From: Cymodocea nodosa | Taxonomy: Eukaryota > Streptophyta > Magnoliopsida > Alismatales > Cymodoceaceae | Length of the DNA stretch: 64,000 nucleotides | Direction: 5' to 3' | Assembly (NCBI GenBank): GCA_036874045.1 | Contig: CM072343.1 | Location: 16,326,001-16,390,000 of the forward strand | Part shown: in pieces, positions 9,081 to 42,518 of the stretch | Layout: each line of letters begins with the position of its first letter | Numbering within the stretch: position 1 is the stretch's first letter | The notes under the pieces: model-generated | Told to the model about the DNA's origin: nothing | Seen by the model: the letters and a program-made list of their open reading frames with translations, nothing else | Database searches by the model: none | Made by a program: the position numbers and the translations under genes

Positions 9081-9091
9081 ATGTCTTATTA

Positions 9092-21033: not shown

Positions 21034-22762
21034 TGTTTAGAATGAAAAAGTGCATATTATTAACGGTTAAATGATGGTTAATTGCATAATATTTAGCTTA
21101 TCATATAAGAATTAAGTCATTAAGTTATAATTGCACTGTTATATGCTTTAATTGAAGAATCTGCTTAATTTAGGGGAATTAATGTTAATTTAGTACATTT
21201 ATGAACTGTCAGTAAGTTGCAAGCTGTGAAATTCTTAAGCATCCGAAATGCACCTAAGCATCGGATAGTTAAATTTATGCACGTGTTGAATTTAAATGCT
21301 TTAGAATATCACATGAGATGCACATGTTTAACTCATTAAGTTAGCATAACTGTACACGTTGAGTTACATGAATATTACACTAAGGTAACGCGTTATGTTA
21401 GCAGCTTATTTCTTTATATTTTCTAATATGCCACTATAGCGGTTGCAGAAAAAAAACCATGTTTGCACGTATCACACAGGAATTCAATCGCGTAGGGAGA
21501 AGAAAGCATCGCCATTGATATGAATGAAGGAAATCCAACCGACCATTCAAGCAGAAGTAGTTACTACTGAAGAAATATAAAAGAAAAGAAGAAGAAAAGA
21601 AGAAGTGTGTGATCGATGGGCGGACAGTGTGTGCAGAGGAGGATCGGCGACGCAATTCTCTGAAGTACCACACCAACCATCGTCATCACCACCATAATCA
21701 CCAACCATCGGAGGTCTGTGAGGATACTTGCCTGATGTCGGGTCGATTCTGAGCCAAACACAGTGCCTAACAACCATTGTGAGGAGTGATCGCGTCGCGG
21801 GAAGGGAAGCCATTTTCACCAAGCGCAGACTCATATTTCAGGAGATCGTAAAGCTTTTAACCTTGGCTTCGGGTTGATGCCTGTATGCTGAAGAGGAGAT
21901 CATCTTGCTATTCTGGACTTGCGATTCTATAGGGAGAGGAGACAAGATTGTAAGTGGTTTAATTTTCAGTAGTGTAATCACATTGCAAGTAGTGTCGGAA
22001 GTATTTACTATCAAGTGAGATTACTTTACATTTCACCTATCACCCATTTCCATGTTCATATTAAAACAAAAATACCAAAAATAATTTATCTATGTTTGTA
22101 TGTTGTATTTGAGTGTTGTATTGTTTGTGTTGTATCGTGATTAATGTTATCTTTGTCAATGTTGTGATTGTTTTATTTTTATTTTTATTTTACAGTTTAC
22201 TGAAATTGGTTCGTTCAAAAGACTTAAAGATTTTAATGGTTACTATTTGAATTATCTAAATGTTAGTATTGCTCAATGATAAATCCAATGTTAACTAACA
22301 TTAAAGAGCTTAATTGATGTTATTTACAATCTGTGGAATCGCCCAATGGTTGGCCAAATTCCTTTGTAAATAGTAGTATTAAAAAGAAAAGTTAGGCTCG
22401 TGGAGTTAAATTAAGTCCACGAGGTTAGTCCGTTGAGTTAGCCATAACTCAACGAACTTAGTCCGTTGAGTTAACTATAAATCAATAGAGAGCTTATTGA
22501 ATATATAAATTTGATTTTTAACAAACGAACAGTTCTCAAGTTCGTCAGCAATTCCCTATGGGATCGACTTGTACTTGCACACTGACACAATAGACACTGT
22601 GCACTTGTAGTTAAAGTACAAATTGGAATTAATATCTAAATTGTATTAAAGGTTGTTTGTTTACTTCTAAAAGAGAGAATAGGCATAAAGATAAATTAAC
22701 TAAGTAAAAACAGAAGTAACAAATCCAAGTTTTTCTAGTGTAGTGCTGGGAAAACCCAAACA
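21034..22762 (+). repeat. 5' LTR of the inner element
   Basis: 1,729 bases, TGTTTAGAATG to CCCAAACA. It has TATAAAAG at 21576-21583, a GC-richer leader at about 21660-21980 and hairpins GTTGAGTTAGCCATAACTCA (22433) and GTTGAGTTAACTATAA (22465). Relative to the 3' LTR it lacks a short stretch near 21450 (AAAAAAAACC versus AACAGATAGTTGGAAGAG). Confidence 0.95.
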
Positions 22763-22769
22763 AGTTTTA

Positions 22770-22787
22770 TGGTGCCGTTACCGGGGA
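22770..22787 (+). other. Primer-binding site of the inner element
   Basis: TGGTGCCGTTACCGGGGA resembles the TGGCGCCGTTGCCGGGGA site found in Athila/Tat-type elements, thought to pair with tRNA-Asp. It sits 7 bases after the LTR end. Two transitions separate it from that consensus. Confidence 0.85.
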
Positions 22788-22809
22788 ATTGAATTGAATT
22801 GAATTGAAT
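22786..22809 (+). repeat. GAATT pentanucleotide microsatellite
   Basis: Four to five GAATT units directly after the primer site. Probably slippage; no function evident. Confidence 0.8.
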
Positions 22810-22857
22810 AGATATAAGCAACTATTAGAGCTGTTTCATTTTAATAGCTAGAGTTGT

Positions 22858-23874
22858 GTGTTTTCTTCTGTAATTGAGAATATGGCATATGCTTATGCTC
22901 AAAGATTTCTGAAACCTGTAATTAGCATATGTGAATTCTGCAATTCTGAAGGACACGACATTTCTGACTGTTTGAAACTAAGACATTTACAGATGATTAG
23001 ATCCCATGAACAACAAATGAATTATCCTCAATATAATAGAGTCGAGTATGAGAATCCTATAGTTTACCCAATTGATGGTCAGTATAGAATGTGTAATATG
23101 ATGAGAGACACTGAAGTTTGGGATAGCTATGACAGACTGGAGGATAGTATAGAGCAAAATCTGGACAAACTGGAATACTTTGTGTGTCAACAACAAGAAG
23201 TCAACCAATTAAACTATAAGGAGGCATATTCAAAACCTAAAAAGGATATAATTTACGAAACTTAAAAAACCATAAAGAAAATTGATCAACAAGTGAATGC
23301 AATGAAATTAGATGATCTGGAAACAAAATTAAAAGCATTAAACGAAAATGCAATGAAAATACAAGTTATGCAACAGGACAATGAAAATTATAATGTTATA
23401 AACCTGCATAATTTGCAAAATATACAGCAAACAGAAAATACTAATGCAAGAGAATTTAAAGAATGCATTTTAAAACTAAAAACAATTGAAGATCATAATC
23501 ACGAAAATGATTTGCAAAAACATCATGAAGGTAATGAAAATTTAGAAGATGTATATGTAACACTAAGATCTAGAACTGATATACCATTAAGAACTCAAAA
23601 TAAAAATGATATGAAGGTGGATAAGAGTAAAAATCAAAATGATAATGAAAATATAATAGCTGAAAATCTAGAAATCACTGAAGAACAATCTGAATCTGCG
23701 AATAAAGCTAAAAATGATCAAACAAATCAACTGAAAGAAAAAGAGTCTTTGAAATCAAAATCTTTAGCACCATATCCTGAAAGATTACAACAAACAATTC
23801 CTGAAAAACAAGAAAAAATCAGAGAAATTTTTGAAAAAGTACAAGTTAACATTCCTTTGTTAGATCTATTGTAG
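22858..23874 (+). pseudogene. Zinc knuckle and charged spacer at the start of pol (inner element)
   Basis: The frame that runs to integrase at 26400 opens here (possible starts at 22858 or 22882). It has a CCHC knuckle, CEFCNSEGHDISDC, about 30 residues in. In ordinary Athila-like gags such a knuckle follows the capsid; here no capsid precedes it, and the capsid is found at 30213-31554. The rest is rich in N, E, K and Q with coiled-coil potential, ending LAPYPERLQQTI and VNIPLLDLL, the usual lead-in to the Athila protease. Stops: TAA 23263 and TAG 23872, the latter just before CAKFLKDW. Confidence 0.85.
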
Positions 23875-23877
23875 AAA

Positions 23878-24640
23878 ATGTCACCTTGTGCTAAATTTCT
23901 TAAGGATTGGTGTACTAAGAAAAGAGAGCGAAAAGTTCTTAAAAATGTCTTTTTAGCTGAGCAAAGTAGTTCCCTATTTCTGCCACAAATTCCAAAAAAG
24001 TTATCTGATCCTGGAATCCCTGTTATATCATGCACCATAGGAAATACCATTCTAGAAAGAACATTAATAGACTTAGGTGCAGGTATAAATGTTATGCCAA
24101 GTGATATATTTGCATCATTAGGATTAGAAGGCTTAACTCCTACTAGTACGGTTATTCAATTAGCTGATAGAAGTATAAGATACCCTAGAGGAAAAATAGA
24201 GGATGTCTTAATTAAAATCAAAAATTTTATATATCCTATTGATATTGTAATTTTGGATTCCCAACAAATTAAGCATAAAAATAGTGATACATCTTTAATT
24301 TTGGGAAGGCCATTTTTAGCAACATCAGAGTGTGTTATAAATTATAAAACTAGAGTAATGAAATTAGCATATGGTAATGAGGATATTCAATTAAATATTT
24401 TCAAACCAGAAATGTTTGAGGAGTTAGAAATGTCCTTACATACCATAGACTTTTTAGAGGATGAAGGAGATATGTTAGATGATGTGATTCAAGAAGAATT
24501 AAATAGGCAAATCAATTCTAAAACTTTAGAAGAAAGTGAAAGCATAAACATAGGAGATCAGGAAGAAATTAATTTAAAAAATGATGATGTTCAATTAGGA
24601 GCTCTAGCTTCTGATGGGCAACATTTAGAATTAAAACCTT
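23878..24640 (+). pseudogene. Aspartic protease of the inner element
   Basis: Retropepsin-like domain: IPVISCTIGNTILERTLIDL then GAGINVMPSDIFASLGLEG. The active site reads DLGAG rather than D(T/S)GA, as is common in Athila-like elements. It continues with VIQLADRSIRYPRGKIEDVL, SLILGRPFLATSECVINY and then an acidic spacer, ending LKPLPPELTYIF. That last motif normally introduces reverse transcriptase. The domain has no stop after 23872. It would process the polyprotein in the particle. Confidence 0.9.
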
Positions 24641-25149
24641 TACCTCCTGAATTAACCTATATATTTAAGTTAATGTGCAATGCTTTTGATTTTGCTGTAG
24701 GAGCAGTGTTAGGACAGAAGATAGAAAAATCTCCTAGAGTGATTCATTATGCAAGCAAAACCTTAAATGATGCTCAAGTTAATTACACAACTACTAAAAA
24801 TGAATTATTAGCTGTTGTGTTTGCTTTAGAAAAGTTTAGATCATATCTGATTGGAGCTAAAGTAATAGTATACACAGATCATTCAGCTCTGAAACATCTA
24901 ATAAAGAAAAAAGAAACTAAACCTAGATTGATCCGATAGATATTATTATTACAAGAATTTGATCTAGAAATTAAAGATAAAAAGGGTTGTGAGAATGTAG
25001 TAGCAGATCATTTATCAAGATTACAAATAGAAAAATCAAATATTGAAATTAAGGATAATTTTCCTGATGAACAATTAATGACCATCAACACAATGCCTTG
25101 GTATGCAGATATAGTTAATTACTTAGTTATTGGTTTAACACCTAAGGAT
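24641..25149 (+). pseudogene. RNase H of the inner element, RT deleted upstream
   Basis: After LPPELTYIF the frame passes directly to KLMCNAFDFAVGAVLGQ, the first RNase H block, with acidic residues in FDFAVG, NELLAVVFALEKF, VYTDHSALKHL and VVADHLSRL. All four acidic positions are kept. The expected 300 or so residues of reverse transcriptase, including the FxDD polymerase motif, are absent, yet the frame is unbroken. A TAG at 24937 (after PRLIR) stands where homologues have Trp (RWIL...). Another stop, TGA, is at 25150. Confidence 0.9.
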
Positions 25150-26400
25150 TGAAATAGACAGGATAAGAAATTATTTTTCTCAAGAGTAAAATATTACTAT
25201 TGGGAAGACCCATACTTATTTAAGAAATGTCCTAATCTGGTTTTAAAGAGGTGTATTCCAGAAACTGAATATTCAAGCATATTGTCTTTCTGTCATGACC
25301 AAACTTGTGGAGGGCATTTTAGTTCAGGAAAAACTACTGCAAAAATTCTGCAATGTGGGTTTTATTGGCCAACACTATTCAAAGATGCTCATAAATATTG
25401 CTTAAGTTGTTTAAGATGTCAATAAATAGGAAGAATATCAAAAAGGAATATGATGCCTCTTAATCCTATTGTTGAGGTTGAAATCTTTGATGTGTGGGGA
25501 ATAGATTTTATGGGTTCATTTCCTATGTCAAATCAATTTAATTACATATTTTTAGGGGTGGATTACGTCTCTAAATGGATAGAAGTTATTCCTACAAAAA
25601 CTAATGATAACAAAGTGGTAATACAATTTATAAGAACAAATATATTTGCCAGATTTGGAATACCTAAAGCTATTATCAGTGATAAAGGAACTCATTTCTG
25701 TAATAGAAGTTTTGAAGCCTTAATGAAGAAATATAGAGTAAACTACAAAATTGCAACATCATATCATCCGCAAACAAGTGGACAAGTAGAAAGTGCAAAC
25801 AAACAAATTAAATTAATCTTGGAAAAAGTAGTAAATCCTACTATGACAGATTGGGCTAATAGATTGATAAATGCACTTTGGGCTTATAGAACTGCTTATA
25901 AAACGAGCTTAGGTATGTCATCTTTTAGGCTAGTATATGGAAAAAGTTGTCATTTACCTACTGAAATAGAACATAAAGCTTATTGGGTATTAAAAACTCT
26001 GAACACTAATTTAATTCAAGCTGCTGAAAATAGGAAAATGCAATTAATTGAATTAGAAGTATTTAGAAATGAAGCTTATTCGAATACTGTAAAAGAAAAA
26101 GAAAAAGTTAAATTTTGGCATGATAAAAAAATTATTCCTAAAAGCTTTGAAATAGGACAAGAAGTATATCTTTATATGGCTAGACTCCATAACCATCTAG
26201 GAAAATTGAAATCTAGATGGGTAGGACATTACATAGTTCGAAATGTTTATCCTTATGGAGCTATTGAAATTGAAAATCCTAAAAATCAGAATATCTTTAA
26301 AGTAAATGGACAAAGACTTAAACCTATTCTGAAAACACCAAAAAGCTCCTTTGGAATTATAGAAGAAGTCAGAGTAGAGGATTACTCGAGCTTTTCTTAG
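25150..26400 (+). pseudogene. Integrase of the inner element
   Basis: HHCC part: CHDQTCGGHFSS then HKYCLSCLRCQ with TAA at 25420. The core reads WGIDFMGSFPMSNQFNY, IISDKGTHFCNRSFEAL and TSGQVESANKQIKLIL with all three acidic residues. The C-terminal domain reads MARLHNHLGKLKSRWVG, then FKVNGQRLKPIL. From 25450 to TAG 26398 there is no break, 316 codons. It is collinear with 15440-16699. The integrase of the inner copy is thus nearly intact although RT is lost. Confidence 0.92.
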
Positions 26401-27058
26401 TAAGTAATCAGTTTTTATGTTTATATATATAAAAAAAAAACATTAAAAATATATATAAAACATAAAAATCGTTGCGGTTCAACCGACAGGATCCATCGGT
26501 ATGATCGAAACATAAAAAAATGTATATTAATTTTCAGAAAAAATATTGGTTTTACCGAAACATAGTATCAGTTCAACCGAAAGAAAAAATAAATAAAAAT
26601 ATATATATAAATATTTAGGTCTGACCGAAACATAGTATCGGTTCAACCGAAAGATAAAAAATAAAATAAAAATATATATATAAATATTTAGGTCTGACCG
26701 AAACATAGTATCGGTTAAACCGGTAAAAAATAGAAAAACTATTCTCAGTAATATTTTTATTATTATATTTGCTTGTACGGGGAGTCCATTGAGTTACGCT
26801 TAACTCAATGAGCTTACTCCGTTGAGTATTGAGTTAGTCAACGAGCTTATTCCGTTGAGTTAACTGTAACTCCACGGAGTACTATAGCTAGGACCGCGGA
26901 TTAAATAGTAATAGTTGGTTCGGAAAATGACCCGATTACCCGCCTAAACTTAGGGCTTATTTAAACTAAAACCTAGGGTTTTGGGGGCATTATCCGGCAA
27001 ATCATTTAGAATCTAGAACATTAGAAATTAGAGCGATTCCGTGCTGTTGTGTAACTCC
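26401..27058 (+). repeat. Spacer after integrase with GGTTCAACCG units and hairpins
   Basis: Units of about 70-80 bases, each with CATAGTATCGGTTCAACCGA and a (TA)n run, repeat at 26562-26725. Two of them are nearly identical. Hairpins of the GTTGAGTTA type follow at 26785-26880. AAAACCTAGGGTTTTGGGGG at about 26968 precedes the third ORF. Confidence 0.75.
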
Positions 27059-29266
27059 ATGATGAGGAAGATGACGCCTGAATTCTGGGAAGAGGCAGTT
27101 GACACCGCACAGTTTTTGAAGGAATCTGAAGAATGGCACACAAGGTAGAAGATCAGAAATACAACATGAGAAAAAGAGTTACAGAAGGTAGAATCTGAAC
27201 TTTTTAGATTAAGAAAAATATTAGTAGATTGTGGTATACAAATACCCCATATAATGGAGAGACGAATTAGAGTAGTAACTGAAATTGTAGTTAGCAAAGA
27301 AAAAAAAAATTGGCCAAACAATGAAGTAGCCCTTGAGCTAATTCAACGTAAAGCCAGATTGTGGTTTAAGAAACGCATTGCTGGTCGAGGAAGTTGGGAA
27401 ATATGGAAGAAGGAACAACAAGAGGCAACTGAAAGACAAGAGGAGCCGACTACTGAAAGACCTGTTCCCAAGGAGCAGCAGCCTGAACCTTTAGTTCCAC
27501 CATTTAAGCCGTTGGCACGAGCAGAAATGATGGAGCCTTCGACTGAAAAAGAGATAAGAGAATTTGCAGAACTGGTTCAAGTTGGGAAGAACCAAGGAGA
27601 ATCAGAAGATTTGGTAATAGCCAAAGCACATCTAGTGTTTGATGCACTTTACAAAAAGAGGGCTGCAGAAAAGTTGAAAGCCCAATATAAAATCAAATTG
27701 GAACAGCATCACGAAGCTACTGCCAGAACTGCTGCCAAATCTGTGCAAAAGAAGCTGAAGCTGGTCCTTCGAGACCAGTAGTTATAAAAAATGTTAAACA
27801 GGAAGAGCCAGTACCTGTGGCTCGAAGGACTGCAGAGCCTATTTTTGTAGATTTAATTTTAGAAGATGAAGAGGAAGAACAGGCACAACTAATCAAAAAA
27901 AAAAAAAGTGCCTGAATATGAGGAAATTAAATCTGAAGTACCAATTTTTACAATGCCTGTGGAGCATATTTTTATTAACCTGCTATCTGATTCTAAGGAG
28001 CAGGAGGAGCAAAGAAAAGAAAAAAATCAGTTTGAAATTGGTCTGCAGCCTATACAAGAAGAAACAGAAATTAGGGCAGAAACTGAATTACCCGTGACTC
28101 CATCCCAATCTGTTACAGAATCAGAAAGAACAGTAACAGAATAGATTGGTGGTCAGGAGGAAAAAGAAAGTGAAGAAAATAAAGAGGCTGAAAGAAGCCA
28201 TTTGGACAAAAATAATTTCACAGATTCCACTGAAGAACAAGAAACTCTTCAGCAATTTATGGAAAGAATTCAAGATAGAGTGGAGAGTTCTGCCGGCTCA
28301 CCACCACAGACAGAAGCAAAAGTAAAAATTCAGGAGTCTATAGAGAATGTTCAAATGCAGCCTATGCTAGAGGAAGAGCAAGAGCAAACCCCTCAGGAGC
28401 AACAAAGTCACCTTCCTGACCCGACTGAAACAACAATTTTAAATGAAGTAGATTTTTGTAGTCAGGAAGCTTATACCAAATACTAAGAAATAAGGGGTTA
28501 TGACATTATTTACAATAGACTAGTAAATTGGGATGGAATTCAAGAAATCAAAGAATTATTTGAATTCCAAGGTCTATTGCAATTTATATCTCAAGAAATA
28601 GGGCATGCAGTATATGAAAATTTAGTGCCCTATTTCTATGCAAATTTGAGAGAAAGAGAAGGAGGATTAATTTCAAACGTGGAGGAAGCTGATGTAAAGA
28701 TAACACCAGAGCTTCTCCATAACATATTTGGTTTAAAGAATGAAGGAACAAAAATTTTGGAAGATACAACTGTAGTTGAATGGACTGAACAGCAAATTAA
28801 GGATTGTTTAGCTATCAATCCTGGTGTGTCATTATTAAACAGATTGAAGCATTTAAATGGTAAAGCACACATGGTAGCTAACATTTTGATTAAGAATGTC
28901 TATCAACGACAGGGCCATGACATAGAATTAAGTCAATTTGTCAAATGGGCCACATATGCAGTTGTAAATAAAATCCAAATAAATTGGTCTGCAGTTTTTG
29001 TCTCCAAGTTGAAAATAGTGAAGAAGAAATTATTTTATGGAGATTTGATTCCACTACTGATGGTGGACTGTATTGATTTCACTAAATGGACATCAAAAAG
29101 GATTAGATCAAGAACCATTTCAGTGAAAGAATACAAAAATTTTGTAGCTGCAGAACAAACTGTACCTTTTGCAAGAATTACAAGAGCAGTAGAGAGGATT
29201 AATCAATTAGAGTTTCAATTAGAAAAACTCCAGAAGGAAGTAGATGAACTTAGGCATAGAGATTAA
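27059..29266 (+). pseudogene. Third ORF of the inner element: plant-transposon-domain protein
   Basis: Start MMRKMTPEFWEEAVDTA at 27059; TAG and TGA follow within 45 codons, then open frames 27254-27781, 27908-28144, 28202-28486 and 28577-29266 with a frameshift near 27765. The N-terminal helical part contains RLWFKKRIAGRGSWEIWKK. The centre is a Glu/Gln/Pro-rich acidic linker with repeated PIFVDL-like and TPSQSVTESE motifs. The C-terminal domain, GHAVYENLVPYFYANLRERE through KLFYGDLIPLLMVDCIDFTK, resembles PF20167-type 'putative plant transposon proteins' and ends in a heptad helix (INQLEFQLEKLQKEVDEL). Role unknown; its place corresponds to env-like ORFs of some Athila elements, but no signal peptide or membrane segment is seen. 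Confidence 0.8.
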
Positions 29267-30212
29267 ATCGTATTGTTCGTCTACTTATGTAAAATTGTAT
29301 GAAATTGTATGATGCACTTGTATTGTAATTCATTCATATTAATGAATGTAAATTTTTCAGATGCAATTTTCATACGTGTTTTGAATGTGAAATGAATGGA
29401 AATTATTGAATATTATGTTATTGTGAAACTTTATGAATGAATATGTAACAGATTTACAATTTACTGAATGACAGGATAACTGCTTAAAAATTTCTGCATG
29501 TTATAAGGTAAAATGTAAATTCTGCATAACATAAAATGACCTGCAAGTTAAATCTTTATATATTGCTTAGATTTAAACGTATTTTTATTAGAATGACGCA
29601 TTAATGACATAGATTTACTTTTATTACAGTTAGCAGAATAAACAAAGAAAAAAATAAAGAGGAATTTAAGAGAGTAAAACTTAGATGTTGCTAAGTGTTA
29701 ACTCAATGAAGTAAGTCTGCTGAGTTAACTGTAACTCCACGAGGTCAGTAATATAATATAAAGTCACTCCGTTGAGTTATCTGTAACTCAACGAAGTTAG
29801 TCCGTGGAGTTAGCAACAGTAACTGACTGTAGTCTGTTGAGTTTTCTATAACTCAACGAGGTTAGTTCGTGGATTAAGCAGAATGGTTATTCTTTTAACC
29901 ACAAACGAAACTTTGTCGATTTAGCGGTTACCAAAATTTGAAATTAGTAGTGGTACACGTACCCATAAAAATAGAAACCACGATGCACGTTGCAAGACAT
30001 GTTCTTGCAACGAGATTTATTCACTTTATGGATGCACATTATATATATAAAACAGAATGTTATTTACAAGTTACCAGCACTTTTAAAAGAAAGGAGAAGG
30101 CGTTGGAGGAATTGGAAGGAGAAGTAGCTAATTCAACTTCATCTGACAATAAATATTTATAAAATGGAAAGCTTCAGACTGGTATGTAATTAATCTTCTG
30201 CTATTTATTTAT
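29267..30212 (+). repeat. Spacer before gag (inner element)
   Basis: AT-rich, non-coding. Hairpins at 29712-29738, 29770-29796 and 29833-29860 (GTTGAGTTATCTGTAACTCA type). A short shared frame lies at 29938-30162, of unknown nature. CTTCAGACTG|GTATGTAAT at about 30172-30190 is a plausible 5' splice site 30 bases before the gag start. Confidence 0.6.
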
Positions 30213-31554
30213 GAGCACATGGACTCGTTCTCTAAGCACTAAACGATTAGTAAAAACACCTACCTAGGAATTTTTATTGTAGAGGAGTACTGAAAAATTT
30301 TCTGAACTGAACTTTAACGAAATTCTTTGGGGTGTAGCTAACCTTTCTTTAAAAGAGAACGTAGAAATGGCTACTCCAGTAGAAAAACCATTAGGAGAAA
30401 TTCTGTATCCTGAATTAATTGATGAAACTTCATGTATTCGATTGCCAAACTTTGAGAGAGATAGGTTTGAACTGAAATCTAATTATATTAGTCAATTACC
30501 ACATTTTCATGGATTAGAAAGAGAGGATGCCTATTATTTCCTTAGAGAATTTAACGAAGTTTGTCAAATGATGAAAATGCCGAACATGAGTATAGATGCT
30601 GTTAAACTTAGATATATCCATTTTTCTTTAAAAGACACAGCTAAGAGATGGTTATATACTCTATTGCCTGATTTAATTTCTACATGGACTGAATTTTGCT
30701 CTGTTTTTCTGGAAAAATATTATCCAACACATCAAACGATTAAAAAGAAGAAAGACATATTAATGTGTAGCCAAAAACAAGGTGAACCATTCTAGAAATA
30801 TTTTGAAAGATTTAAAGATTTACTGACTCAATGTCCACATCATGCAATGAGTAAAGCACAACTAATAGGTATAATTTATGAAGGCATAGATGTTTCAACG
30901 AAATCTTTATTAGAATCTACTTGTCAAAATAGATTTTTAAAGTTATGTAGTGAAGAAGCATGGGCATATTTAGAAAACTTTGCAAAAAGAACTACATAGT
31001 GGGAAAATTCGGCTGAAGCTATTGCAGATAAAAGAATATTGCCAAGAGGAATACATGAAAGAGATTCCAATACTATGCTTGAGGTGAAATTAAATGAATT
31101 AACAAAGAAAATAGAAGAGTTATCATTAAATCAAAAGCTAGCAGAAAATAATGCAAACATAAATGACTTAGATATTATTTATGCTAGAAACCAGAGAGAT
31201 AACTTGGGAAATTCTTATCATCCTAATTGGAGAAATCACCTGAATTTATCTTGGAGAAACAATAATTTCCAAGGAGGAGAAAATATAAATGAGAAAAACA
31301 TAAGTTATGAAGTATTAATTGAACAAGGAGCTAGAATAGAGAAATTAGAAAAGATAATCCAACAAGTAAACAATCGTCTAGAATTTATATTTGGAAATGC
31401 TGCAATTCAAAATCAGAATAGAAATATATCACTTAGACAGAAGGAACCAATGGAAGTTAGACCTACTAGAGGATTGCCAATACAAGCTATACCTAATCCT
31501 ATCAATAGAACGGTTAATGAAATTGATACCTCTTTTGGGAGGGTAGCTGAATGA
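30213..31554 (+). pseudogene. Gag capsid protein of the inner element, located 3' of pol
   Basis: Frame starts MSTWTRSLSTKRLV and ends at TGA 31552-31554 (447 codons). Retrotrans_gag domain: LKDTAKRWLYTLLPDLISTW, FLEKYYPTHQTIKKK, KYFERFKDLLTQCPHH. C-terminal part: YHPNWRNHLNLSWRNNNFQ, the usual Athila gag signature. No CCHC knuckle is seen within it; that lies at the start of pol. Stops near 30267 and 30282 (TAG), 30793 (TAG for Trp) and 30997 (TAG for Gln) are transitions. It is followed after 190 bases by the F-box gene. Finding gag after integrase in both copies argues for a family trait. Confidence 0.9.
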
Positions 31555-31744
31555 AGCAGCATATCTGAAGCAACTATCTATATGTATATATGTTTTTTAT
31601 TTTTAGTTAATAGTATCGTAGAGTTAATTTTTAACTCAACGAACTTAGTCTGTTGAGTTATGCCTTAACTCCACGAGGGTGTGCAGTAGTTAGGTTAATT
31701 TTTGTCTCTGCTAAATTTTTGTTTGTGTTTTACAGAATCAACAA
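31555..31744 (+). promoter_or_regulatory. Gag/F-box spacer with 3' splice-site-like end
   Basis: Contains a GTTGAGTTATGCCTTAACTC hairpin (31642) and ends TTTTTGTTTGTGTTTTACAG (AG at 31734-31735), 9 bases before the F-box ATG. The outer copy has the equivalent TTTTTGTTTATATAG with AG at 39569-39570. A pyrimidine-rich acceptor at the same place in both copies suggests the F-box ORF is reached by splicing. Confidence 0.5.
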
Positions 31745-32884
31745 ATGGAATTGATGCAATTACCAATGGATGCACTAAGGGAAGTACTAAGTAACTTGTC
31801 AACTAAAGATCTGTGCAGGCTATGTTATGTATCAAAGGAAATTAAAGACTGTATTGATGAAAAATATTTTCAAGGACTACAAGCTGCAAAAATGACTAAG
31901 ATTAGAGAAGGATTCATATGGAGGTCATTTAATCGTAGTTCAAATACCCATGAATATCTGACTATGGAAGAAACTACTGGAATTCCACCCAATGCATTAG
32001 AAGGAATAAATCATATTATGGGGATAGATGAAGGATTAATCATATACAAGACGAGACCAAGGTATGCAAGTTTATTATTACTTGATATTTTGATAAGAAA
32101 TCCTATAACAGGAGAAGAATGGAATATAGGAAGACCTAATAGATTTGAAGCACCAACTGTAAATTGTGGGTCAGCTTTGATATTTTCTGATAAAAATTCT
32201 GTAATTCCTAAAAAATTATATTATTGGAGACCTACAGGAAATTAGGGTGAAGATTTACGCTTAAGTGTGTATAATTTTCTGAACATATCTTGGAATGAAA
32301 ATATTATGATATATCTAGGACAGAAATCATTAATTAACCAAACACATGTCATACTTGATGGATATATATATCTAATCACGGAGATATCATTAGCATATGG
32401 ATCTGATTTATACATAGTGAGCATAGATAGTTATGATGAATATATAAAAATTTTACCTGTACCAAGTGAAATAGCTAAACCACCATCTGCAGAATTTAAT
32501 GAAATTCAAATAGGAATGTGGTATAATGAAGAAGATGATCCTACTTTATGTCTGATAAGATGGTGGGATGAACTGATGAAATTTCAAATATGAATTATGG
32601 AAGACATAAATGAATGGAAGTGGGAAGAAGAGTATATTGAAATAGATGTAGAAATAGAAACTGCTACATTACCCTGGAACCAAAAAGGATCCCTTTCTGC
32701 ATTACATATCATTAATGGTAATACCCTCGTATTTGGAATTTATAATATATTGCATGTTTACAAATTAAGAAGGAACAAGAACTGCATTAAAACAGAATTA
32801 ATAGCAAGAAGAACTATGCCTAAAAAGTTTGCTTGGACTGATACATTTATTCCATTTGTTTCTACTTTTCAATCATGTTCTTAA
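31745..32884 (+). pseudogene. Retrotransposon-borne F-box/F-box-associated protein (inner copy)
   Basis: 380 codons from ATG 31745 to TAA 32882-32884, in one frame, broken only by TAG 32243 and TGA 32591. The outer copy has TGG (Trp) at both. Residues 4-45 form an F-box: LPMDALREVLSNLSTKDL then CRLCYVSKEIKDCI, the SKP1-binding helix set. The rest resembles the F-box-associated (FBA) domain of plant F-box proteins: ITGEEWNIGRP, HVILDGYIYLITE, LCLIRWWDELMKFQI, EWKWEEEYIEIDVEIE, and a final WTDTFIPFVSTFQS. Plant F-box/FBA proteins recruit substrates to SCF ubiquitin ligases. That this one does so, or that it acts on silencing or particle proteins, is inference. It lies between gag and the 3' LTR. 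Confidence 0.8.
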
Positions 32885-34630: not shown

Positions 34631-34638
34631 GGGGGAAG
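34631..34638 (+). other. Polypurine tract of the inner element
   Basis: GGGGGAAG abuts the TG of the 3' LTR. It is preceded by TTTGCTAAGGGACTAGCAAA, the usual Athila-type lead-in. The outer copy has TGGGGAAG at the same place (42511-42518). Confidence 0.9.
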
Positions 34639-36384
34639 TGTTTAGAATGAAAAAATGCATATTATTAACGATTAAATGATGGTTAATTGCATAATATTTA
34701 GCTTATCATATAAGAATTAAGCCATTAAGTTATAATTACACTATTATATGCTTTAATTGAAGAATCTGCTTAATTTGGGGAAATTAATGTTAATTTAGTA
34801 CATTTATGAACTATTGGTAAGTTGCAAGCTGTGAAATTCTTAAGTATCTGAAATGCACTTGAGCATCGGATAGTTAAATTTATGCACGTGTTGAATTTAA
34901 ATGCTTTAGAATATCACGTGAGATGCACATGTTTAACTCATTAAGTTAGCATAACTGTACGCGTTGAGTTACATGAATATTACACTAAGGTAACGCGTTA
35001 TGTTAGCAGCTTATTTGTTTATATTTTCTAATATGCCATTGTAGCGGTTGCAGAAACAGATAGTTGGAAGAGAAAAACCACGTTTGCACGTATCACGCAG
35101 GAATTCAATCGTGCAGGGAGAAGAAAGCATCACCGTTGATATGAATGAAGGAAATCCAACCGACCATTCAAGCAGAAGCAGTTACTACTAAAGAAATATA
35201 AAAGAAAAGAAGAAAAAAAGAAGAAGTGTGTGATCGATGGGCAGACAGTGTGTGCAGAGGAGGATCAGCGACGTAATTCTCTAAAGTACCACACCAACCA
35301 TCATCATTACCATCATCACCACCATAATCACCAACCATCGGAGGTCTGTGAGGATACTTGCCTGATGTCGGGTCGATTCCGAGCCAAACACAATGCCTGA
35401 CAACCACTGTGAGGAGTGATCGCGTCACGGGAAGGGAAGCCATTTTCACCAAGCGCCGACTCATATTTCAGGAGATCGTAAAGCTTTTAGCCTTGGCTTC
35501 GGGTTGATGCCTATATGCTGAAGAGGAGATCATCTTGCAATTCTGGACTCGCGATTCTATAGGGAGAGGAGACAGGATTGTTAATTTTTAGTGGTGTAAT
35601 CGCATTGCAAGTAGTGTCGGATGTATTTACTATCAAGTGAGATTACTTTACATTTCACCTGTCACCCATTTCCATGTTCATATTAAAACAAAAATACCAA
35701 AAACAATTTATCTATGTTTGTATGTTGTATTTGAGTGTTGTATTGTTTGTGTTGTATCGTGATTAATGTTATCTTTGTTAATGTTGTGATTGTTTTATTT
35801 TTATTTTAGTTTTACAGTTTACTGAAATTGGTTCGTTCAAAAGACTTAAAGATTTTAATGGTTACTGTTTGAATTATCTGAATGTTAGTATTGCTCAATG
35901 ATAAATCCAATGTTAACTAACATTAAAGAGCTTAATTGATGTTATTTACAATCTGTGGAATCGCCCAATGGTTGGCCGAATTCCTTTGTAAATAGCAGTA
36001 TTAAAAAGAAAAGTCAGGCTCGTGGAGTTAAATTAAGTCTACGAGGTTAGTCTGTTGAGTTAGCCATAACTTAACGAACTTAGTTCGTTGAGTTAACTAT
36101 AAATCAATGGAGAGCTTATTGAATATATAAATTTGATTTTTAACAAACGAACAGTTCTCAAGTTCGTCAGCAATTCCCTATGGGATCGACCTGTACTTGC
36201 ACACTGATACAATAAACACTGTACACTTGTAGTTAAAGTACAAATTGGAATTAATATCTAAATTGTATTAAAGGTTATTTGTTTACTTCTAAAAGAGAGA
36301 ATAGGTATAAAGATAAATTAACTAAGTAAAAACAGAAGTAACAAATCCAAGTTTTTCTAGTGTAGTGCTGGGAAAACCCAAACA
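34639..36384 (+). repeat. 3' LTR of the inner element
   Basis: 1,746 bases from TGTTTAGAATG to CCCAAACA, followed by ATGCT. TATAAAAG at 35197-35204 and CACGTG near 34916. Hairpins at about 36052 and 36082 match those of the 5' LTR. Confidence 0.95.
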
Positions 36385-36389
36385 ATGCT

Positions 36390-36910
36390 ATTAAACTTAG
36401 ATATATCTCTTTTACTTTAAAAGACAACTAAGAGATGGTTATATACTCTATCGCCTGATTCAATTTCTACATGGACTGAATTTTGCTCTATTTTTCTAGA
36501 AAAATATTATCCAACACATCAAACGATTAAAAAGAAAAATGAAATATTAATGTGTAGCCAAAAACAAGGAGAATCATTCTAGAAATATTTTGAAAGATTT
36601 AAAGATTTACTGACTCAATGTCCACATCATATAATGAGTAAAACACAATTAATAGGTATAATTTATGAAGGCATAGATGTTTCAACGAAATCTTTATTAG
36701 AATCTACTTGTCATAATGGATTTTTAAAACTGTGTAGTGAAGAAGCATGGGCATACTTAGAAAACTTTGCAAAAAGAACTACACAGTGGGAAAACTCAGC
36801 TAAAGCTATTACAGATAAAAGAATATTGCCAAGGGGAATGCATGAAATAGATTCAAGCACTATGTTTGAAGTTAAATTAACTGAATTAACAAAGAAAATA
36901 GAAGAGTTAT
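36390..36910 (+). pseudogene. Gag of the outer element, part 2
   Basis: Resumes the reading cut at 21033 (ATTAAACTTAGATATATC). It has a 2-base deletion at about 36425 against the inner gag and a TAG near 36580. Segments KYFERFKDLLTQCPHH and LLESTCHNGFLKLCSEEAWA are clear. Cut at 36910 (GTTAT) by a solo LTR, after KKIEELL. Confidence 0.9.
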
Positions 36911-38919
36911 TGTTTAGAATGAAAAAGTACATAATATTAACGGTTAAATGATGGTTAATTGCATAATATTTAGCTTATCATATGAGAATTAAGCCATTAT
37001 GTTATAATTGCACTATTATATGCTTTAATGAAAGAATCTGCATAATTTCAAGTTATTAGCGTTAATTTAATACATTTCTGAACTGTTGGTAAGTTGCTCA
37101 TTTTTAAATCTTTAGTATCCGAATTTTCTATTATTTCGGAGAGTTATGTTTAATGTACTAGAAAGTTATGTTTTAAACGCTAAAAGAATATTTAGGTGAA
37201 TAGTAATAACTCACTGAGTTAGTGTTCTTTTTGTTAAAAGATCACGTGCCAACTCGTTGAGTTATAGATTTAAAGGTATAAAAAGATCATGTGAGAACTC
37301 GTTGAGTTAGCGAGTAAAAACCTTAAGTTATATATATGAACTCGTTAAGTTAGAATTATGCACATGTTGAATTTAAATGCTCTATTATGTCATGTGAGAT
37401 GCACATGTTTAACTCGTTAAGTTAGCATAACTGCACGCGTTGAGTTACATGAATACGCACTAAGGTAACGCGTTAGGTTAGCAGCTTATTTCTTTATTGC
37501 ACGTGTTTTATAGTTAAATCAACGAAGTAAGTCCGTTGAGTTATCTGTAACTCCACGGACCATTTATTTTCTAATATGCCACTATAGCGGTTACAGAAAC
37601 AAGACATTCGAAGGAAAACCATGATCACACGCATCACGTAGGAATTCACTCGTCGAAGGGAGAAGAAATCGTCGTCGTTGATATGAATGAAGGAAATCCA
37701 ACCGACCATTCAAGTAGAAGTAGTTACCACTGAAAAAATATAAAAGAAAAGAAGAAAAAGAAGTAAAGTGTGTGATCGATGGGTGTGGCCAGTGTGTGTA
37801 GAGGAGGATCAACGTCGGTAATTCTCTGAAGTACCACACCAACCATCATCACCACCACCATAATCACCAACCATCGGAGGTCTGTGAGGATACTTTCCTA
37901 ATGTCGGGTCGATTCCGAGCCAAACACAGTGCCTAACAACCACTATGAGGAGTGATCGCGTCGCAGGAATAGAAGTCATTTTCACTAAGCGCCAACTCAT
38001 ATCTCAGGAGATCGTAAAGCTTCTTGCCTTGGCTTCAGGTTGATGCCTGCATGCTGAAGAGGAGATCATCTTGCAATTCTGGACTTGCGATTCTATAGGG
38101 AGAGGAGGCAAAACTGTAAGTAATTAAGTTTTCAGTGGTGCAATCGCATCACATGTAGTGACGGAAGTATTTACTATCGACTAAGATTACTTTACATTTC
38201 ACCTTTCGCCCATTTCCATGCTCATATCAAAACAAAAATACCAAAAATAACTTATCTGTGTTTATATTTTGTATTTGAGTGTTGTATTGTTTGTTTTGTA
38301 TCGTGATTAATGTTATGTTTGTCAGTGTTTTGATTATTTTATGTTTGTTTTAGAATTACAGTTTACTGAAATTGGTTCGTTCAAAAGACTTAAAAATTTT
38401 AATGGTTATTGTTTAAATTATCTGAATGTTAGTATTGCCTAAAGATAAATCCAGTATTTACTAACATTAAAGAGCTTAATTGGTGTTATTTACAATTTGT
38501 GGAACCGCCCAATGGTTGACCGATTTCCTTTGTAAATAGCAGTATTAAATAGGAAATGTAGGCTCGTGGAATTAACTTAAGTCCACGAGGTTAATCCGTT
38601 GAGTTAAATGTAACTTAACGGAGAGCTTATTGAATATATAAATTTGATTGTTAAAATTAGAACAGTTCGCAATGCTTAAGTAATTTCCTTTAGGATCGAC
38701 CTGTACTTGTACACTAATATAATAGACACTGTGCACTTGCAGTTAAAATACACATTGGAATTAATATCTAATTTGTGTAAAAGGTTGTTTGTTTACTTCT
38801 AAAAAGGAATATGCATAAAGATAAACTAAGTAAAAATAGAAGTTAACAAATCCAAGTTTTTCTAGCGCGTTGCTGGGTAACCAAACAAGTTTTCTAGTGC
38901 CGTGCTGGAGATCCAAATA
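36911..38919 (+). mobile_element. Solo LTR in the outer gag, TSD GTTAT
   Basis: 2,009 bases starting TGTTTAGAATG; GTTAT at 36906-36910 and 38920-38924; gag coding continues on both sides. Closest to the inner-element LTRs (GAGAGCTTATTGAATATATAA near 38620). The 3' end is unusual: TTTTTCTAGCGCGTTGCTGG (about 38857) and TTTTCTAGTGCCGTGCTGGA (about 38890) form an imperfect tandem repeat, so the LTR ends ATCCAAATA rather than CCCAAACA. The second unit resembles the primer-site segment. TATAAAAG at 37739-37746. Confidence 0.9.
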
Positions 38920-38924
38920 GTTAT

Positions 38925-39361
38925 CATTAAATCAAAAGCTAGTAGAAAAAAATGTAAACATTAATGATTTAGATATTATTTATGCTAGAAACCAAAAATA
39001 TAACTTTGGAAATTCTTATAACCCTTATTGGAGAAATCACCCGAATCTATCTTAGAAAAACAACAATTTCCAAGGAGGAGAAAATATAAATGACAAAAAT
39101 ATAAGTTATGAAGCATTAATTGAACAAGGATCAAGAATAGAGAAGTTAGAAAAGATAATTTAATAATTAAATAATCGTCTAGATCTTGTATTTGGAAATG
39201 CTGCCATTCAAAATCAAAATATGAATAGAAATATACCCCCTAGATAGAAGGAATCAATAGAAGTTAGACCTACAAGAGGATTGCCAATGCAAGTAGTATC
39301 TAACCTTGTCAACAAGACTGTTAATGAAATTGATACCTCCTATGGAAGGGAAGCTGAATGA
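38925..39361 (+). pseudogene. Gag of the outer element, part 3 (C-terminal)
   Basis: Starts with CATTAAATCAAAAGCTAG, the continuation of 36910. It shows NPYWRNHPNLS, then a TAG for Trp, and ends RTVNEIDTSYGREAE-like at TGA 39359-39361, as in the inner gag. Several further stops. With parts 1 and 2 it accounts for the whole gag, so the outer element had the same gag position between third ORF and F-box. Confidence 0.88.
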
Positions 39362-39581
39362 AGTAGTATAACAAAAGTAACTATGTATAATATAGTAAAT
39401 ATAAAAATATATAAAAAGAAAAAATGTAAGTTTAATTATAGTTAGTAATATCGTAGAGTTATTACTTAACAAAACAAACTTAATTCGTTGAGTTATGACC
39501 TAACTTACGAGGGTAAGTAAGTAGCTATGTTAATTTTGTCTCTATTAAATTTTTGTTTTTGTTTATATAGAATCACAACAG
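39362..39581 (+). promoter_or_regulatory. Gag/F-box spacer with acceptor-like site (outer copy)
   Basis: Collinear with 31555-31744. A weakened hairpin (GTTGAGTTATGACCTAACTT) lies near 39488 and TTTTTGTTTATATAG ends at 39570, 11 bases before the ATG. Confidence 0.45.
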
Positions 39582-40721
39582 ATGGAATTGATGAAATTAC
39601 CACTAAATGCACTAAGAGAAGTACTGAGTAACCTATCAGCTAGAGATCTATGTAAACTGTGTTGTGTAGCAAAGGAAATTAAAAACTGTGTTAGAGAAAA
39701 ATATTTTCATGGACTACAAATTACAAAAATGACTAAGATTAGAGATGGATTTTTATGGAAGTCATTTAATCATAGTTCAATTAGCTATGAATATCTGAAT
39801 ATGGAAGAAACTACTGGAATTCCACCCAATACATTAGAAGGAATAGATCATATTATGGGGATAGATGAATGATTAATTATTTACAGAACCAAACCAAGGT
39901 ATGCAATTCTATTACCCGATATTATGATTAGAAATCCTATCACAAGAGAAGAATGAAATATAGGAAGGCCTAATAGATTTGAAGTACCAACTGAAAATTG
40001 TGGGTCAGCTTTAACATTTTCTAATAAAAATTTGACCATTCCTAAAAAATTGTATTACTGGAGGCCAACGGGAAATTGGGATGAAGATTTATGTTTAAAT
40101 GTGTATAATTTTCTAAATGGATCTTGGATTGAAAATACTATGATATATCTAGAACAGAAAGCATTAATTAACAATATACATGTCATACTTGATGGATGTA
40201 TATATCTAGTGACAGATATATAAGTTGCATTTAGATCTAATTTATACATAGTAATCATAGATAGTTATGATGATAACTTTATAGAAATATTACCTATACC
40301 AAGTGATATAGCTAAACCACCGTCTACAGAATTTGATAAAATTCAATTAAGAATGTGGTATAATGAATATGATGATCCTACTTTATGTCTGATCAGATGG
40401 TGGGATGAAGTGATGAAATTTCAAATATGGATTATGAAAGACCTAAATGAATGGAAGTGGGAAGAGGAATATATTGAAATACATGTAGAAATAGAAACAG
40501 ATACATTATCTTGGAATAGAAGAGGATCCCTTTTTGCATTTCAATTCATTAATGGAAATACACTTATATTTAATATTGATAACATACTATAAGTTTACAA
40601 GTTAAAAAGGAAAACGAACTGCATTAAAACAGAATTAATAGCAAGAAGGATTATGCCTAAAAAGTTTGCTTGGACTGACATGTTTATTCCATTTGTTACT
40701 ACTTTTCAATCATGTTCTTAA
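39582..40721 (+). pseudogene. Retrotransposon-borne F-box/FBA protein (outer copy)
   Basis: Exactly as long as the inner copy (1,140 bases, 380 codons). Two 3-base indels relative to it cancel (near 39905 and 40275), so the frame was kept through divergence. Stops: TGA 39870, TGA 39954 (Trp in the inner copy), TAA 40221 and TAA 40590. The F-box LPLNALREVLSNLSARDL and CKLCCVAKEIKNCV is intact, and the FBA part reads HVILDGCIYLVTDI, LCLIRWWDEVMKFQIWIMKD and FAWTDMFIPFVTTF. It keeps the two Trp codons lost in the inner copy. The copies therefore had an intact common ancestor and acquired different stops. Now a pseudogene. Confidence 0.8.
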
Positions 40722-42510
40722 ACTGTGATTCTATGTGTTTAATATTATGTGTATTCTACATTTATTTTTAGAAAAAAAAAAAAGAGAAAGAAAAATTTTA
40801 GTTTTAGTTTTATTTTATAAGAAAAGAAAAAAAAAATATCAATCTAGTTTGTTGGTATCTATTTTGGGAAACTAACTAGCTTGCTTATGAGCCACCAAAG
40901 GCATAGAAGCTTGGGTTCCACACAAGACACTGAATTAACAATTTATGTTTTGTTATTTTGTTATATATTCTGCTTTTATTTGTGAATGAAAAGTTTTTCA
41001 GAATCAAAAAATCGAAAGATATTGAAGGAGATACAAAAGAACAATGTATGTAATTGATTACTTATCCTGAATTTACATTTAAACTCAATTCGTGAAGTTA
41101 TTCATTAACTCAATGAATTAAGTTCATTGAGTTAGGTGTTAAGTCAACGAAACAATATTCATGTTTGCTAACATTTACTGTATTTACTATAACTTTTACA
41201 TTGAGTACAATGCAAAATGTAGGTATGGGGGGAGGTAATTAGATTAACAGCCAAGTAATTTTGTTAATTAGAGGAATTAGAATGGTGTTGCAAAGTTCTG
41301 TGGAAATTGAAAATTTTGTATAAATTTGCTGTAACTATCCGATAATTGAGATTGTCAAATTTTTAAGAACTGTAACTACTTGAATGTTATATTTATAATC
41401 TTATATAAGATGCTATAAATTTTACTATTAATACAAATCTAAATATAGTATCTTATGTTTTTGCTGAATTTTATGAGTTTAACAGTTTCACAATTTTAAA
41501 AAGAAATCAGAATGCTTAACTAAAACTCAGTAGATTATCTGAAATCCTGAAAGAGTTGAAATGTTGATTTTTGGATTAAATGAAATACATATGATCAAGG
41601 ATACATTTAATTTGATTGATTAAACTTGTAGAATGATTTATGTGTAAATCTTATTAAACTACCGAAAAAGTATGAGCTTATTGATATGATTCATATTTTC
41701 AGTTAATAATAGAAGCAGGACTATACGAGATTTGTGTTTTATTACATTTGTATTAATGGAATACGTACATATACTGTGTTGAAAAAAAAAATAAAAAATA
41801 AAAAATTTGAGATTTTATTGACTTGTTTGATCACAAGCCTTTTGTACTTGAGTAGATAGGTATGTAAGGATTGTTGACTTGAAAAATGACTCTTTAAATC
41901 TGGCAACCTAAGATCCTAATCAAATCTAGGATTGTTGACTGAAAACTCGATACATGGGTGCACTAGAAAGCTCTTGTATGATTCAAGCTTTTCAAATTAA
42001 CTTTTAAAGTACAAATATGCATATACTGTTCTAAAAAGATAAAAGTATTTTGTGAAATACAGAAATCTTTTGAATCAAGTATACTTTCTGTTGTCTAGGA
42101 TTACTGAAGTATGAATCTAGAATAGACTTTTGAAGTTGTTTATTGGAGATACAATTCAATATTCTACTTGTTTTAATCATATTGAATTGGATTGTGTTTT
42201 GATTCGTATGTAGTTTAAATTTATTTTGGAAATCATATTGGAAAATTCAGGATAACAAATGTTAAAGAAGAAAAAATGATAATATAATTACTACCTATGT
42301 GATGCTAATATATTTTGTATGTAATTTACATATGTTTTAAATATATTTGCAGGTTGAATAGGAGAAAGCAATGTTAAAACATATTACTAAAAAATATAAA
42401 ATATCTATATAGTAATCTAATTTATGTATTCTGAAGAAGTAATTCCAGCAACTTTAGAAAGACCAACTAGTTAGATCTTAGTTTGCTAAGGGACTAGCAA
42501 AATTTAAGTA
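40722..42510 (+). other. 3' untranslated region of the outer element
   Basis: No gene seen. Internal purine tract GTATGGGGGGAGG at 41223-41235 after ACATTGAGTACAATGCAAAA. Two GTTGAGTTA-like hairpins near 41092-41150 are absent at the matching place in the inner copy. A-rich runs near 40770 and 41790. Confidence 0.65.
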
Positions 42511-42518
42511 TGGGGAAG
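42511..42518 (+). other. Polypurine tract of the outer element
   Basis: TGGGGAAG directly before the LTR TG, after TTTGCTAAGGGACTAGCAAA. Confidence 0.85.

What the first reader, a model, noticed from the sequence alone, without database searches (positions are those of the whole stretch)
31745..32884. An F-box/FBA gene carried inside an Athila-like retrotransposon
The sequence shows a 380-codon frame between gag and the 3' polypurine tract, inside an element bounded by matching LTRs and an ATGCT duplication. It starts with an F-box (LPMDALREVLSNLSTKDL) and continues with FBA-like motifs (LCLIRWWDE, FAWTDTFIPFV). F-box proteins recruit targets to SCF ubiquitin ligases. Some plant viruses (polerovirus P0, nanovirus Clink) encode F-box proteins that act on silencing or the cell cycle. 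A retrotransposon with its own F-box could use the same strategy against host silencing or its own proteins. That last step is inference.
Basis: partly seen in the sequence, partly recalled or inferred. Interest (0 to 1): 0.92.

Follow-up and report, generated by a model that had tools for sequence, protein, structure and literature searches.

The report
F-box gene inside plant retrotransposon family
Two separately inserted copies of a plant jumping gene (LTR retrotransposon) carry the decayed remains of the same F-box gene, a type of gene that helps mark proteins for destruction, so the gene looks like part of the element and not a one-off passenger.

Summary
The F-box frame is real and lies inside an LTR element with an ATGCT target duplication (element A, 21034-36384; LTRs 96% identical). 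It is not open: two in-frame stops cut it, and the longest intact ORF is 166 aa. The Pfam F-box match is E=4.5e-10. The tail is FBA-like (TIGR01640: 3.3e-4 in A, 5e-8 in the second copy; both below the curated cut-off). A sits inside an older, partial relative (element B) with the same ORF at the same place (39582-40721, 86.4% identical, four other stops). No stop is shared. The only two gap runs are 3 nt, against 22 in the 3' noncoding region. dN/dS is 0.47, moderate evidence because controls reach 0.56. The ORF was probably intact in the common ancestor and kept in frame within the element. F-box genes inside LTR elements have been reported as single cases (flax, Thlaspi); family-level retention in a gypsy element was not seen in the papers I found. 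SCF recruitment fits but is inferred; an anti-silencing role is speculation. The window's own genome could not be searched. Verdict: a real extra gene of a retrotransposon family, a new variant of a known kind.

The parts
31745..32884 (+). F-box/FBA-like ORF of element A: 379 codons plus stop, with in-frame stops at codons 167 and 283; F-box at residues 4-42
39582..40721 (+). Homologous F-box/FBA-like ORF of element B, with in-frame stops at codons 97, 125, 214 and 337; 86.4% nt identity to A, two 3-nt gap runs
31700..31735 (+). T-rich stretch ending in ACAG, splice-acceptor-like, 9 bases before the ATG (B has a T-rich stretch ending in ATAG at 39570); judged by eye
31617..31678 (+). Palindromic box(es) in the gag'/F-box spacer, related to the box next to the LTR TATA
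30367..31554 (+). Second gag-like region (gag'), broken by two in-frame stops; Retrotrans_gag PF03732 E 1.4e-8 in the 30367-30792 piece
29695..29877 (+). Palindromic boxes in the ORFX/gag' spacer
28487..29266 (+). ORFX, last part; weak match to PF20167 Transposase_32 (E 1e-5, below cut-off; scanned as 28577-29263)
27170..27781 (+). ORFX, first part; no Pfam match in the scanned piece 27254-27778
26779..26882 (+). Palindromic boxes in the integrase/ORFX spacer
25426..26400 (+). Integrase ORF (rve PF00665, E 5.3e-13 in 25450-26397)
23878..24939 (+). Protease-like and RNase H domains in one ORF; no reverse transcriptase domain found between them
22852..23265 (+). ORF with a CCHC-like zinc-finger motif (by eye; no Pfam match)
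22770..22787 (+). Candidate primer binding site; the only match of this 18-mer in the window at up to 3 mismatches
21034..22762 (+). 5' LTR of element A; palindromic boxes at 22393-22486, TATATAA at 22502
34639..36384 (+). 3' LTR of element A (1652 of 1721 aligned sites identical to the 5' LTR); preceded by a purine-rich stretch
21029..21033 (.). Target site duplication ATGCT, left copy
36385..36389 (.). Target site duplication ATGCT, right copy, inside gag' of element B
15463..21033 (+). Element B, left part: integrase, ORFX, start of gag'
36385..36910 (+). Element B, gag' continuation between A and a solo LTR
38920..44608 (+). Element B, right part: end of gag', F-box ORF, 3' LTR from 42519; right end judged by eye
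36911..38919 (+). Solo LTR inserted in gag' of B; duplication GTTAT at 36906-36910 and 38920-38924

Best explanation
The ORF is a resident accessory gene (extra ORF) of an Athila-like (OTA-type) Ty3/gypsy family. It derives from a plant-type F-box/FBA gene captured before copies A and B diverged, and it was kept under purifying selection while the family moved. It would be expressed from the element's own transcription, either by splicing to the acceptor-like site just before its ATG or from an internal promoter marked by the palindromic boxes. The intact protein would bind host SKP1/ASK through its F-box and present a target bound by its FBA-like tail to an SCF ubiquitin ligase. Shown here: the same position in two copies, private stops, frame conservation, and the F-box and FBA-like similarity. 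Inferred: capture from a host gene, expression, SKP1 binding and ligase function. The target is unknown: a host restriction or silencing factor, or the element's own Gag. Both copies in this window are broken.
For: F-box PF00646 in A (4.5e-10) and B (2.4e-8); TIGR01640 F_box_assoc_1 in A (3.3e-4) and B (5e-8). Same position in two insertions: A lies within gag' of B with its own ATGCT duplication. None of the six in-frame stops (2 in A, 4 in B) is shared. Indels: 2 gap runs, both 3 nt, in 1137 aligned ORF positions against 22 in 1686 aligned 3' noncoding positions (Poisson P 4.5e-5, Fisher P 0.0011). dN/dS 0.47 against a simulated neutral mean of 0.90, 0 of 1000 simulations as low. Synonymous changes are as frequent as in the integrase (50.5 of 236.3 against 41.0 of 204.7 sites), as expected if both were inherited together. 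Third-position GC (0.208) is nearer to integrase (0.19), gag' (0.225) and ORFX (0.271) than to the one host gene compared (PPR, 0.409).
Against: Only two copies, both broken. In one search the ten control frames (noncoding, LTR, wrong frames) ran from 0.56 to 1.02, so 0.47 is the second lowest of 12 values but near the lowest control. One of four stretches of the ORF (alignment columns 170-290) gave 1.02. FBA matches are below curated cut-offs. No expression data. No relative found among 5.8 billion proteins or in viral contigs. Structure prediction of the intact piece failed (mean pLDDT 35.3). The three gag' pieces next to it do not show clear constraint (75, 247 and 22 of 1000 simulations as low). 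F-box genes between LTRs are reported elsewhere as simple captures (flax, PMC5142383).
Confidence: 0.6

Rival explanations
1. Neutral passenger: a host F-box gene was captured once, shortly before A and B separated, and was carried without function.
For: Captured genes in plant LTR elements, usually in one or a few copies, are known (PMC7264820 parts 1-2; PMC3726574 passages), and a flax Ty1-copia element with an F-box gene between its LTRs is described as a capture (PMC5142383 passages). Both copies here are broken. dN/dS is only moderately low and near the edge of the controls.
Against: Few indels, none that shifts the frame, compared with adjacent noncoding DNA; no shared stop; synonymous divergence like that of the integrase; base composition like the element's own genes.
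Confidence: 0.25
2. The F-box protein is a silencing suppressor that works like polerovirus P0, marking an ARGONAUTE or another silencing factor for destruction.
For: P0 is an F-box protein that assembles an SCF ligase against AGO1 (PMC11371168 passages). An element gains by escaping silencing (inference). An orchid gypsy family has fixed an RNA demethylase, which its authors link to host surveillance of transposable elements (PMC9289625, abstract and sections 5 and 12).
Against: No comparison with viral suppressors was made and no target is indicated. The tail is of the plant FBA type, whose targets vary widely (recalled).
Confidence: 0.15
3. The F-box protein regulates the element itself, for example by turning over Gag to set particle levels or limit copy number.
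For: It lies directly behind gag'. Regulatory roles are proposed for accessory ORFs of plant elements, though for antisense ones (PMC7264820 part 2).
Against: No direct evidence; position can also reflect chance capture.
Confidence: 0.12
4. The ORF is a host F-box pseudogene that arrived in A alone by a later insertion with its own boundaries.
For: None found.
Against: It is present at the same position, with homologous flanks, in element B, into which A jumped.
Confidence: 0.02

Closest known systems
Extra ORFs (eORF/aORF) between pol and the 3' LTR of OTA (Ogre/Tat/Athila) gypsy elements, including Athila env-like ORFs (PMC6317226 passages and section 9; PMC7264820 parts 1-2; PMC2410132 passages)
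   Same: Extra sense-strand gene between pol and the 3' LTR; eORFs are heterogeneous and thought to be acquired independently; in Arabidopsis Athila, gag and env-like ORFs of pol-less elements are under purifying selection and families recombine
   Different: The extra gene encodes an F-box/FBA-like protein; the passages read name plant mobile domain, Transposase_28 and Athila ORF-1 as the prominent eORF domains. A also has a second gag-like region after the integrase
Flax Ty1-copia element (RLC_Lu6 family) with an F-box gene between its LTRs (PMC5142383 passages)
   Same: An F-box gene inside an LTR retrotransposon
   Different: One element of the copia type, described as gene capture; here a gypsy-type family, two separate copies, with frame conservation between them
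Thlaspi arvense 'LTR-gene' TaChr6G576 in the F-box family (PMC8764390 passages)
   Same: An F-box family gene flanked by LTRs
   Different: Treated as a duplicated host gene and tandemly duplicated; not described as a gene of an element family in the passages seen
Phalaenopsis gypsy elements with an AlkB-type m6A demethylase ORF (PMC9289625)
   Same: A gypsy family that kept a host-type gene as an extra ORF in several copies
   Different: Demethylase with shown activity in large (25 kb) elements; here an F-box gene, untested, two broken copies
Polerovirus P0 (PMC11371168 passages)
   Same: F-box protein encoded by a virus or element
   Different: P0 has shown SCF assembly and AGO1 degradation; no homology or target is shown here
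Sirevirus palindromic repeated motifs (PMC2829016 section 9)
   Same: Palindromic boxes near the LTR TATA and again upstream of the extra gene
   Different: Sireviruses are Ty1/copia, mostly with CGG-CCG cores; here a gypsy-type element with a CTCAACGAACT...CGTTGAG box, in the three spacers of A between integrase, ORFX, gag' and F-box
Plant F-box proteins with F-box associated domain (PF00646, PF07734, TIGR01640)
   Same: F-box, then FBA-like region, in the same order
   Different: Encoded inside a retrotransposon; FBA match below curated cut-offs; no close relative found

Membership tests
F-box protein (PF00646) | F-box domain above Pfam gathering score | tested here: met
   A 39.5 bits, B 34.0 bits, cut-off 20.5
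F-box protein (PF00646) | Binds SKP1/ASK and joins an SCF ligase | not testable with these tools
   needs a binding assay
F-box/FBA subfamily (TIGR01640, FBA_1) | FBA domain above curated cut-off | tested here: inconclusive
   TIGR01640 A 20.1 bits, B 32.5 bits, cut-off 37.9; FBA_1 B 16.3 bits, cut-off 21.1, none in A; stops masked as X
LTR retrotransposon | Two matching LTRs, target duplication, candidate PBS and purine tract, integrase | tested here: met
Ty3/gypsy, OTA clade, Athila | Integrase downstream of RNase H (gypsy order) | tested here: met
   RNase H in 23878-24939, then integrase 25450-26397
Ty3/gypsy, OTA clade, Athila | No chromodomain; no second (archaeal-type) RNase H | tested here: inconclusive
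   neither was found in the ORF pieces scanned at E<=0.01 and E<=10; only those pieces were scanned and pol is incomplete. Criteria from PMC6317226 section 9
Ty3/gypsy, OTA clade, Athila | Placement of RT/RH/INT with Athila in a phylogeny | not tested
   A lacks RT; no tree was built
Ty3/gypsy, OTA clade, Athila | Athila ORF-1 domain (PF03078; in 16% of Athila elements, PMC6317226 passage), not obligatory | tested here: inconclusive
   not found in the ORF pieces scanned
P0-type viral F-box silencing suppressor | Suppresses RNA silencing through AGO1 degradation | not testable with these tools
   no target evidence

The most novel reading that the evidence does not exclude
A plant retrotransposon family carries a selected F-box/FBA gene as an accessory factor that redirects the host SCF ubiquitin ligase against a host silencing or restriction factor: a retroelement counterpart of viral F-box suppressors and of lentiviral accessory proteins that hijack ubiquitin ligases (the lentiviral comparison is recalled).
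Probability: 0.15. Interest if true: 0.9.

Novelty: new variant of a known kind. Interest (0 to 1): 0.55.

Why it matters
Extra genes in plant LTR elements are common, but only about a fifth matched known domains in one survey (21.4%, PMC6317226 passage) and their functions are mostly unknown. An F-box/FBA-like gene held in frame by a mobile family offers a concrete, testable activity (SKP1 binding, substrate degradation). If borne out it would show that retrotransposons, like some plant viruses, can use the host ubiquitin system.

Tried and rejected
Protein relatives: the F-box frame of A with X at stops gave 1475 candidates, none at E<=0.001; the A plus B alignment gave 4617 candidates, none at E<=10. 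The control with the intact integrase gave 7821 of 8000 scored candidates at E<=1e-10. Of the 120 listed, the closest is 69% identical, and 20 of the 21 with a named organism are plants; the other is a bacterium. So plant retroelements are held, but nothing very near to this family was listed, and the word filter can miss distant F-box proteins: the negative for the F-box is weak.

Viral contigs: no F-box relative; one weak gag' hit (L001) was not followed. PDB sequence searches gave only hits at E 0.59 or worse. AlphaFold on the intact 166-aa piece gave mean pLDDT 35.3, so no fold search was run.

Considered and rejected: X2 (1845-3803) as the 5' LTR of B. It has GGTAT on both sides and is a solo LTR; B has no identified 5' LTR in the window. 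The 99.8% direct repeat 53328-55683/61645-64000 as an LTR pair: no LTR-like ends seen.

Literature: ten searches (one search was malformed). On checking, that was wrong: PMC5142383 reports one in flax and PMC8764390 an LTR-flanked F-box family gene in Thlaspi. I lowered interest from 0.62 to 0.55 for this. PMC13310191 mentions F-box only in its reference list. Other listed papers holding both words, among them PMC6135824, PMC13017756, PMC6124018, PMC4791638, PMC7826183 and PMC8285094, were not opened. Additional file 4 of PMC6317226 and Supplementary Figure 1 of PMC9289625 list further domains and could not be read, so an F-box may be listed there.

Full report
OBSERVATION. Window 31745-32884 reads as a 379-codon frame plus stop, with two in-frame stops at codons 167 and 283; its longest intact ORF is 166 aa. 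Residues 4-42 match the F-box (PF00646 E 4.5e-10, 39.5 bits, cut-off 20.5). The 2 stops before the last one compare with a mean of 33.7 (minimum 18) in 2000 base shuffles of the same stretch, and the other two forward frames have 40 and 43. The two tail pieces gave no Pfam or NCBIfam match when cut at the stops. With X at the stops, A matches TIGR01640 F_box_assoc_1 over residues 169-334 at 3.3e-4; the second copy matches it over 113-326 at 5e-8 and FBA_1 at 0.0092. All are below curated cut-offs, so 'F-box with an FBA-like tail' is likely but not firm.

THE ELEMENT. Element A runs 21034-36384: LTRs 21034-22762 and 34639-36384 (1652 of 1721 aligned sites identical), ATGCT on both sides, a purine-rich stretch before the 3' LTR, and a candidate PBS at 22770-22787, the only match of that 18-mer in the window at up to three mismatches. 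The PBS resembles the tRNA-Asp type that I recall for Athila; this was not tested. The order inside is: ORF with a zinc-finger-like motif, protease-like and RNase H in one ORF, integrase, ORFX (weak PF20167), a gag-like region (PF03732, here gag'), F-box ORF, about 1.75 kb noncoding, 3' LTR. No reverse transcriptase domain was found between protease and RNase H, so this copy as it stands probably could not move by itself. The gag' region after the integrase is unusual. One possible origin, by inference, is recombination between a pol-bearing element and a pol-less one with gag plus an extra ORF, as described for Arabidopsis Athila (PMC2410132, passages).

THE SECOND COPY. A sits inside gag' of another member, B: the sequence left of A (15463-21033) and right of A (36385-36910, then 38920-44608 after a solo LTR with duplication GTTAT) matches the integrase-to-3'-LTR part of A. 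B carries the F-box ORF at 39582-40721, 982 of 1137 aligned sites identical to A, with stops at codons 97, 125, 214 and 337; none coincides with A's. So A and B are separate insertions, and their common ancestor most simply had no stop in this frame. B has no identified 5' LTR in the window.

SELECTION. Between A and B the ORF has 2 gap runs, both of 3 nt, in 1137 aligned positions; the 3' noncoding region has 22 in 1686, giving Poisson P 4.5e-5 and Fisher P 0.0011. dN/dS is 0.47; a neutral simulation with the observed substitution spectrum gave a mean of 0.90 and 0 of 1000 as low. The same measure in ten control frames (two wrong frames each of F-box and integrase, three of the 3' noncoding region, three of LTRs) ran 0.56-1.02, so it can read low on DNA that is not coding and the dN/dS evidence is moderate; integrase gave 0.29. 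In four stretches of the ORF (alignment columns 0-60, 60-170, 170-290, 290 to the end) the values were 0.51, 0.33, 1.02 and 0.30. In one search, which took seven regions, integrase and both parts of ORFX were also below all 1000 simulations, while the three gag' pieces were not clearly so (75, 247 and 22 of 1000 as low). Synonymous change in the F-box ORF (50.5 of 236.3 sites) is like that in the integrase (41.0 of 204.7), while ORFX is much more diverged (71.5 of 156.3 in its last part): the family looks mosaic, but in this pair the F-box ORF has about the same age as the integrase. Third-position GC of the ORF (0.208) is near integrase (0.19), gag' (0.225) and ORFX (0.271), and unlike the one host gene compared (PPR ORF, 0.409).

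EXPRESSION SIGNALS. A T-rich stretch ending in ACAG at 31735 lies 9 bases before the ATG in A; B keeps a T-rich stretch ending in ATAG although the spacer is only 69.8% identical. By eye this looks like a splice acceptor; no donor was sought. A palindromic box (TAACTCAACGAACTTAGTCCGTTGAGTTA; 10 rows, that is 8 sites of which two count on both strands, at up to 3 mismatches, 0 expected) lies in the LTR just upstream of a TATATAA at 22502. Related, diverged boxes lie in the three spacers of A between integrase, ORFX, gag' and F-box (26779-26882, 29695-29877, 31617-31678), with counterparts in B (17083-17245, 20115-20303; weak at 39452-39507). Against a simple 'box before each gene' rule: B also has weak matches behind its F-box ORF (41088-41152), and the stretch 27782-28486 between the two ORFX parts has none. 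Sireviruses show palindromic motifs in the LTR upstream of the TATA box and upstream of the env-like gene (PMC2829016, section 9). That the boxes here regulate the internal genes is inference.

RELATIVES AND LITERATURE. No protein relative was found, and none in viral contigs. In the integrase control the closest of 120 listed proteins is 69% identical. The window's own genome could not be searched: the tool was busy 11 times. Precedents: a flax Ty1-copia element carries an F-box gene between its LTRs and is described as a gene capture (PMC5142383, passages), and Thlaspi arvense has an LTR-flanked gene of the F-box family (PMC8764390, passages). A screen of LTR elements in 121 angiosperm genomes reports 15 non-canonical domains passing its filter; the sections I read (5 and 12) name nine, with no F-box, and the term does not occur in its main text (PMC9289625). 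The term is also absent from the main texts of PMC6317226, PMC11963269, PMC13317346 and PMC3726574, and from PMC7264820 by the count. Supplements were out of reach.

VERDICT. The likely function is an SCF substrate receptor encoded by the element; target and benefit are unknown. Single captures of F-box genes by LTR elements were already in print; what is new here, within the papers found, is retention across copies of a gypsy-type family with signs of selection on the frame. It is a new variant of the known extra-ORF kind, limited by two broken copies and no genome-wide count.

Noticed in passing
22393-22486, 26779-26882, 29695-29877, 31617-31678 (A); 17083-17245, 20115-20303 (B): Palindromic boxes shared by the LTR promoter region and the spacers ahead of ORFX, gag' and F-box, resembling Sirevirus repeated motifs in layout.
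   Followed up: partly
23878-24939: Protease-like and RNase H domains in one open frame with no reverse transcriptase domain between them: an apparent in-frame loss, so A probably moved with help from another element.
   Followed up: partly
30367-31554: A second gag-like region after the integrase, in both A and B; unusual order for a gypsy element.
   Followed up: partly
27170-29266 versus 17517-19655: ORFX differs far more between A and B (67% and 80% identity in its two parts) than integrase (91%) or F-box (86%): signs of a mosaic family.
   Followed up: partly
1845-3803 and 36911-38919: Solo LTRs of the same family with duplications GGTAT and GTTAT.
   Followed up: yes
7089-10816: Fragments of a Ty1/copia element (copia-type gag, gag-pre-integrase, RVT_2).
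   Followed up: no
53328-55683 and 61645-64000: Direct repeat, 99.8% identical over 2356 bases, reaching the window end; ends do not look like LTRs. A lipase-like ORF (58570-59643) lies between the copies.
   Followed up: partly
48797-50773: Intact PPR ORF of 658 codons, probably a host gene.
   Followed up: no
12920-13236: Short tandem array with a unit of about 55 bases, seen in the self-comparison.
   Followed up: no
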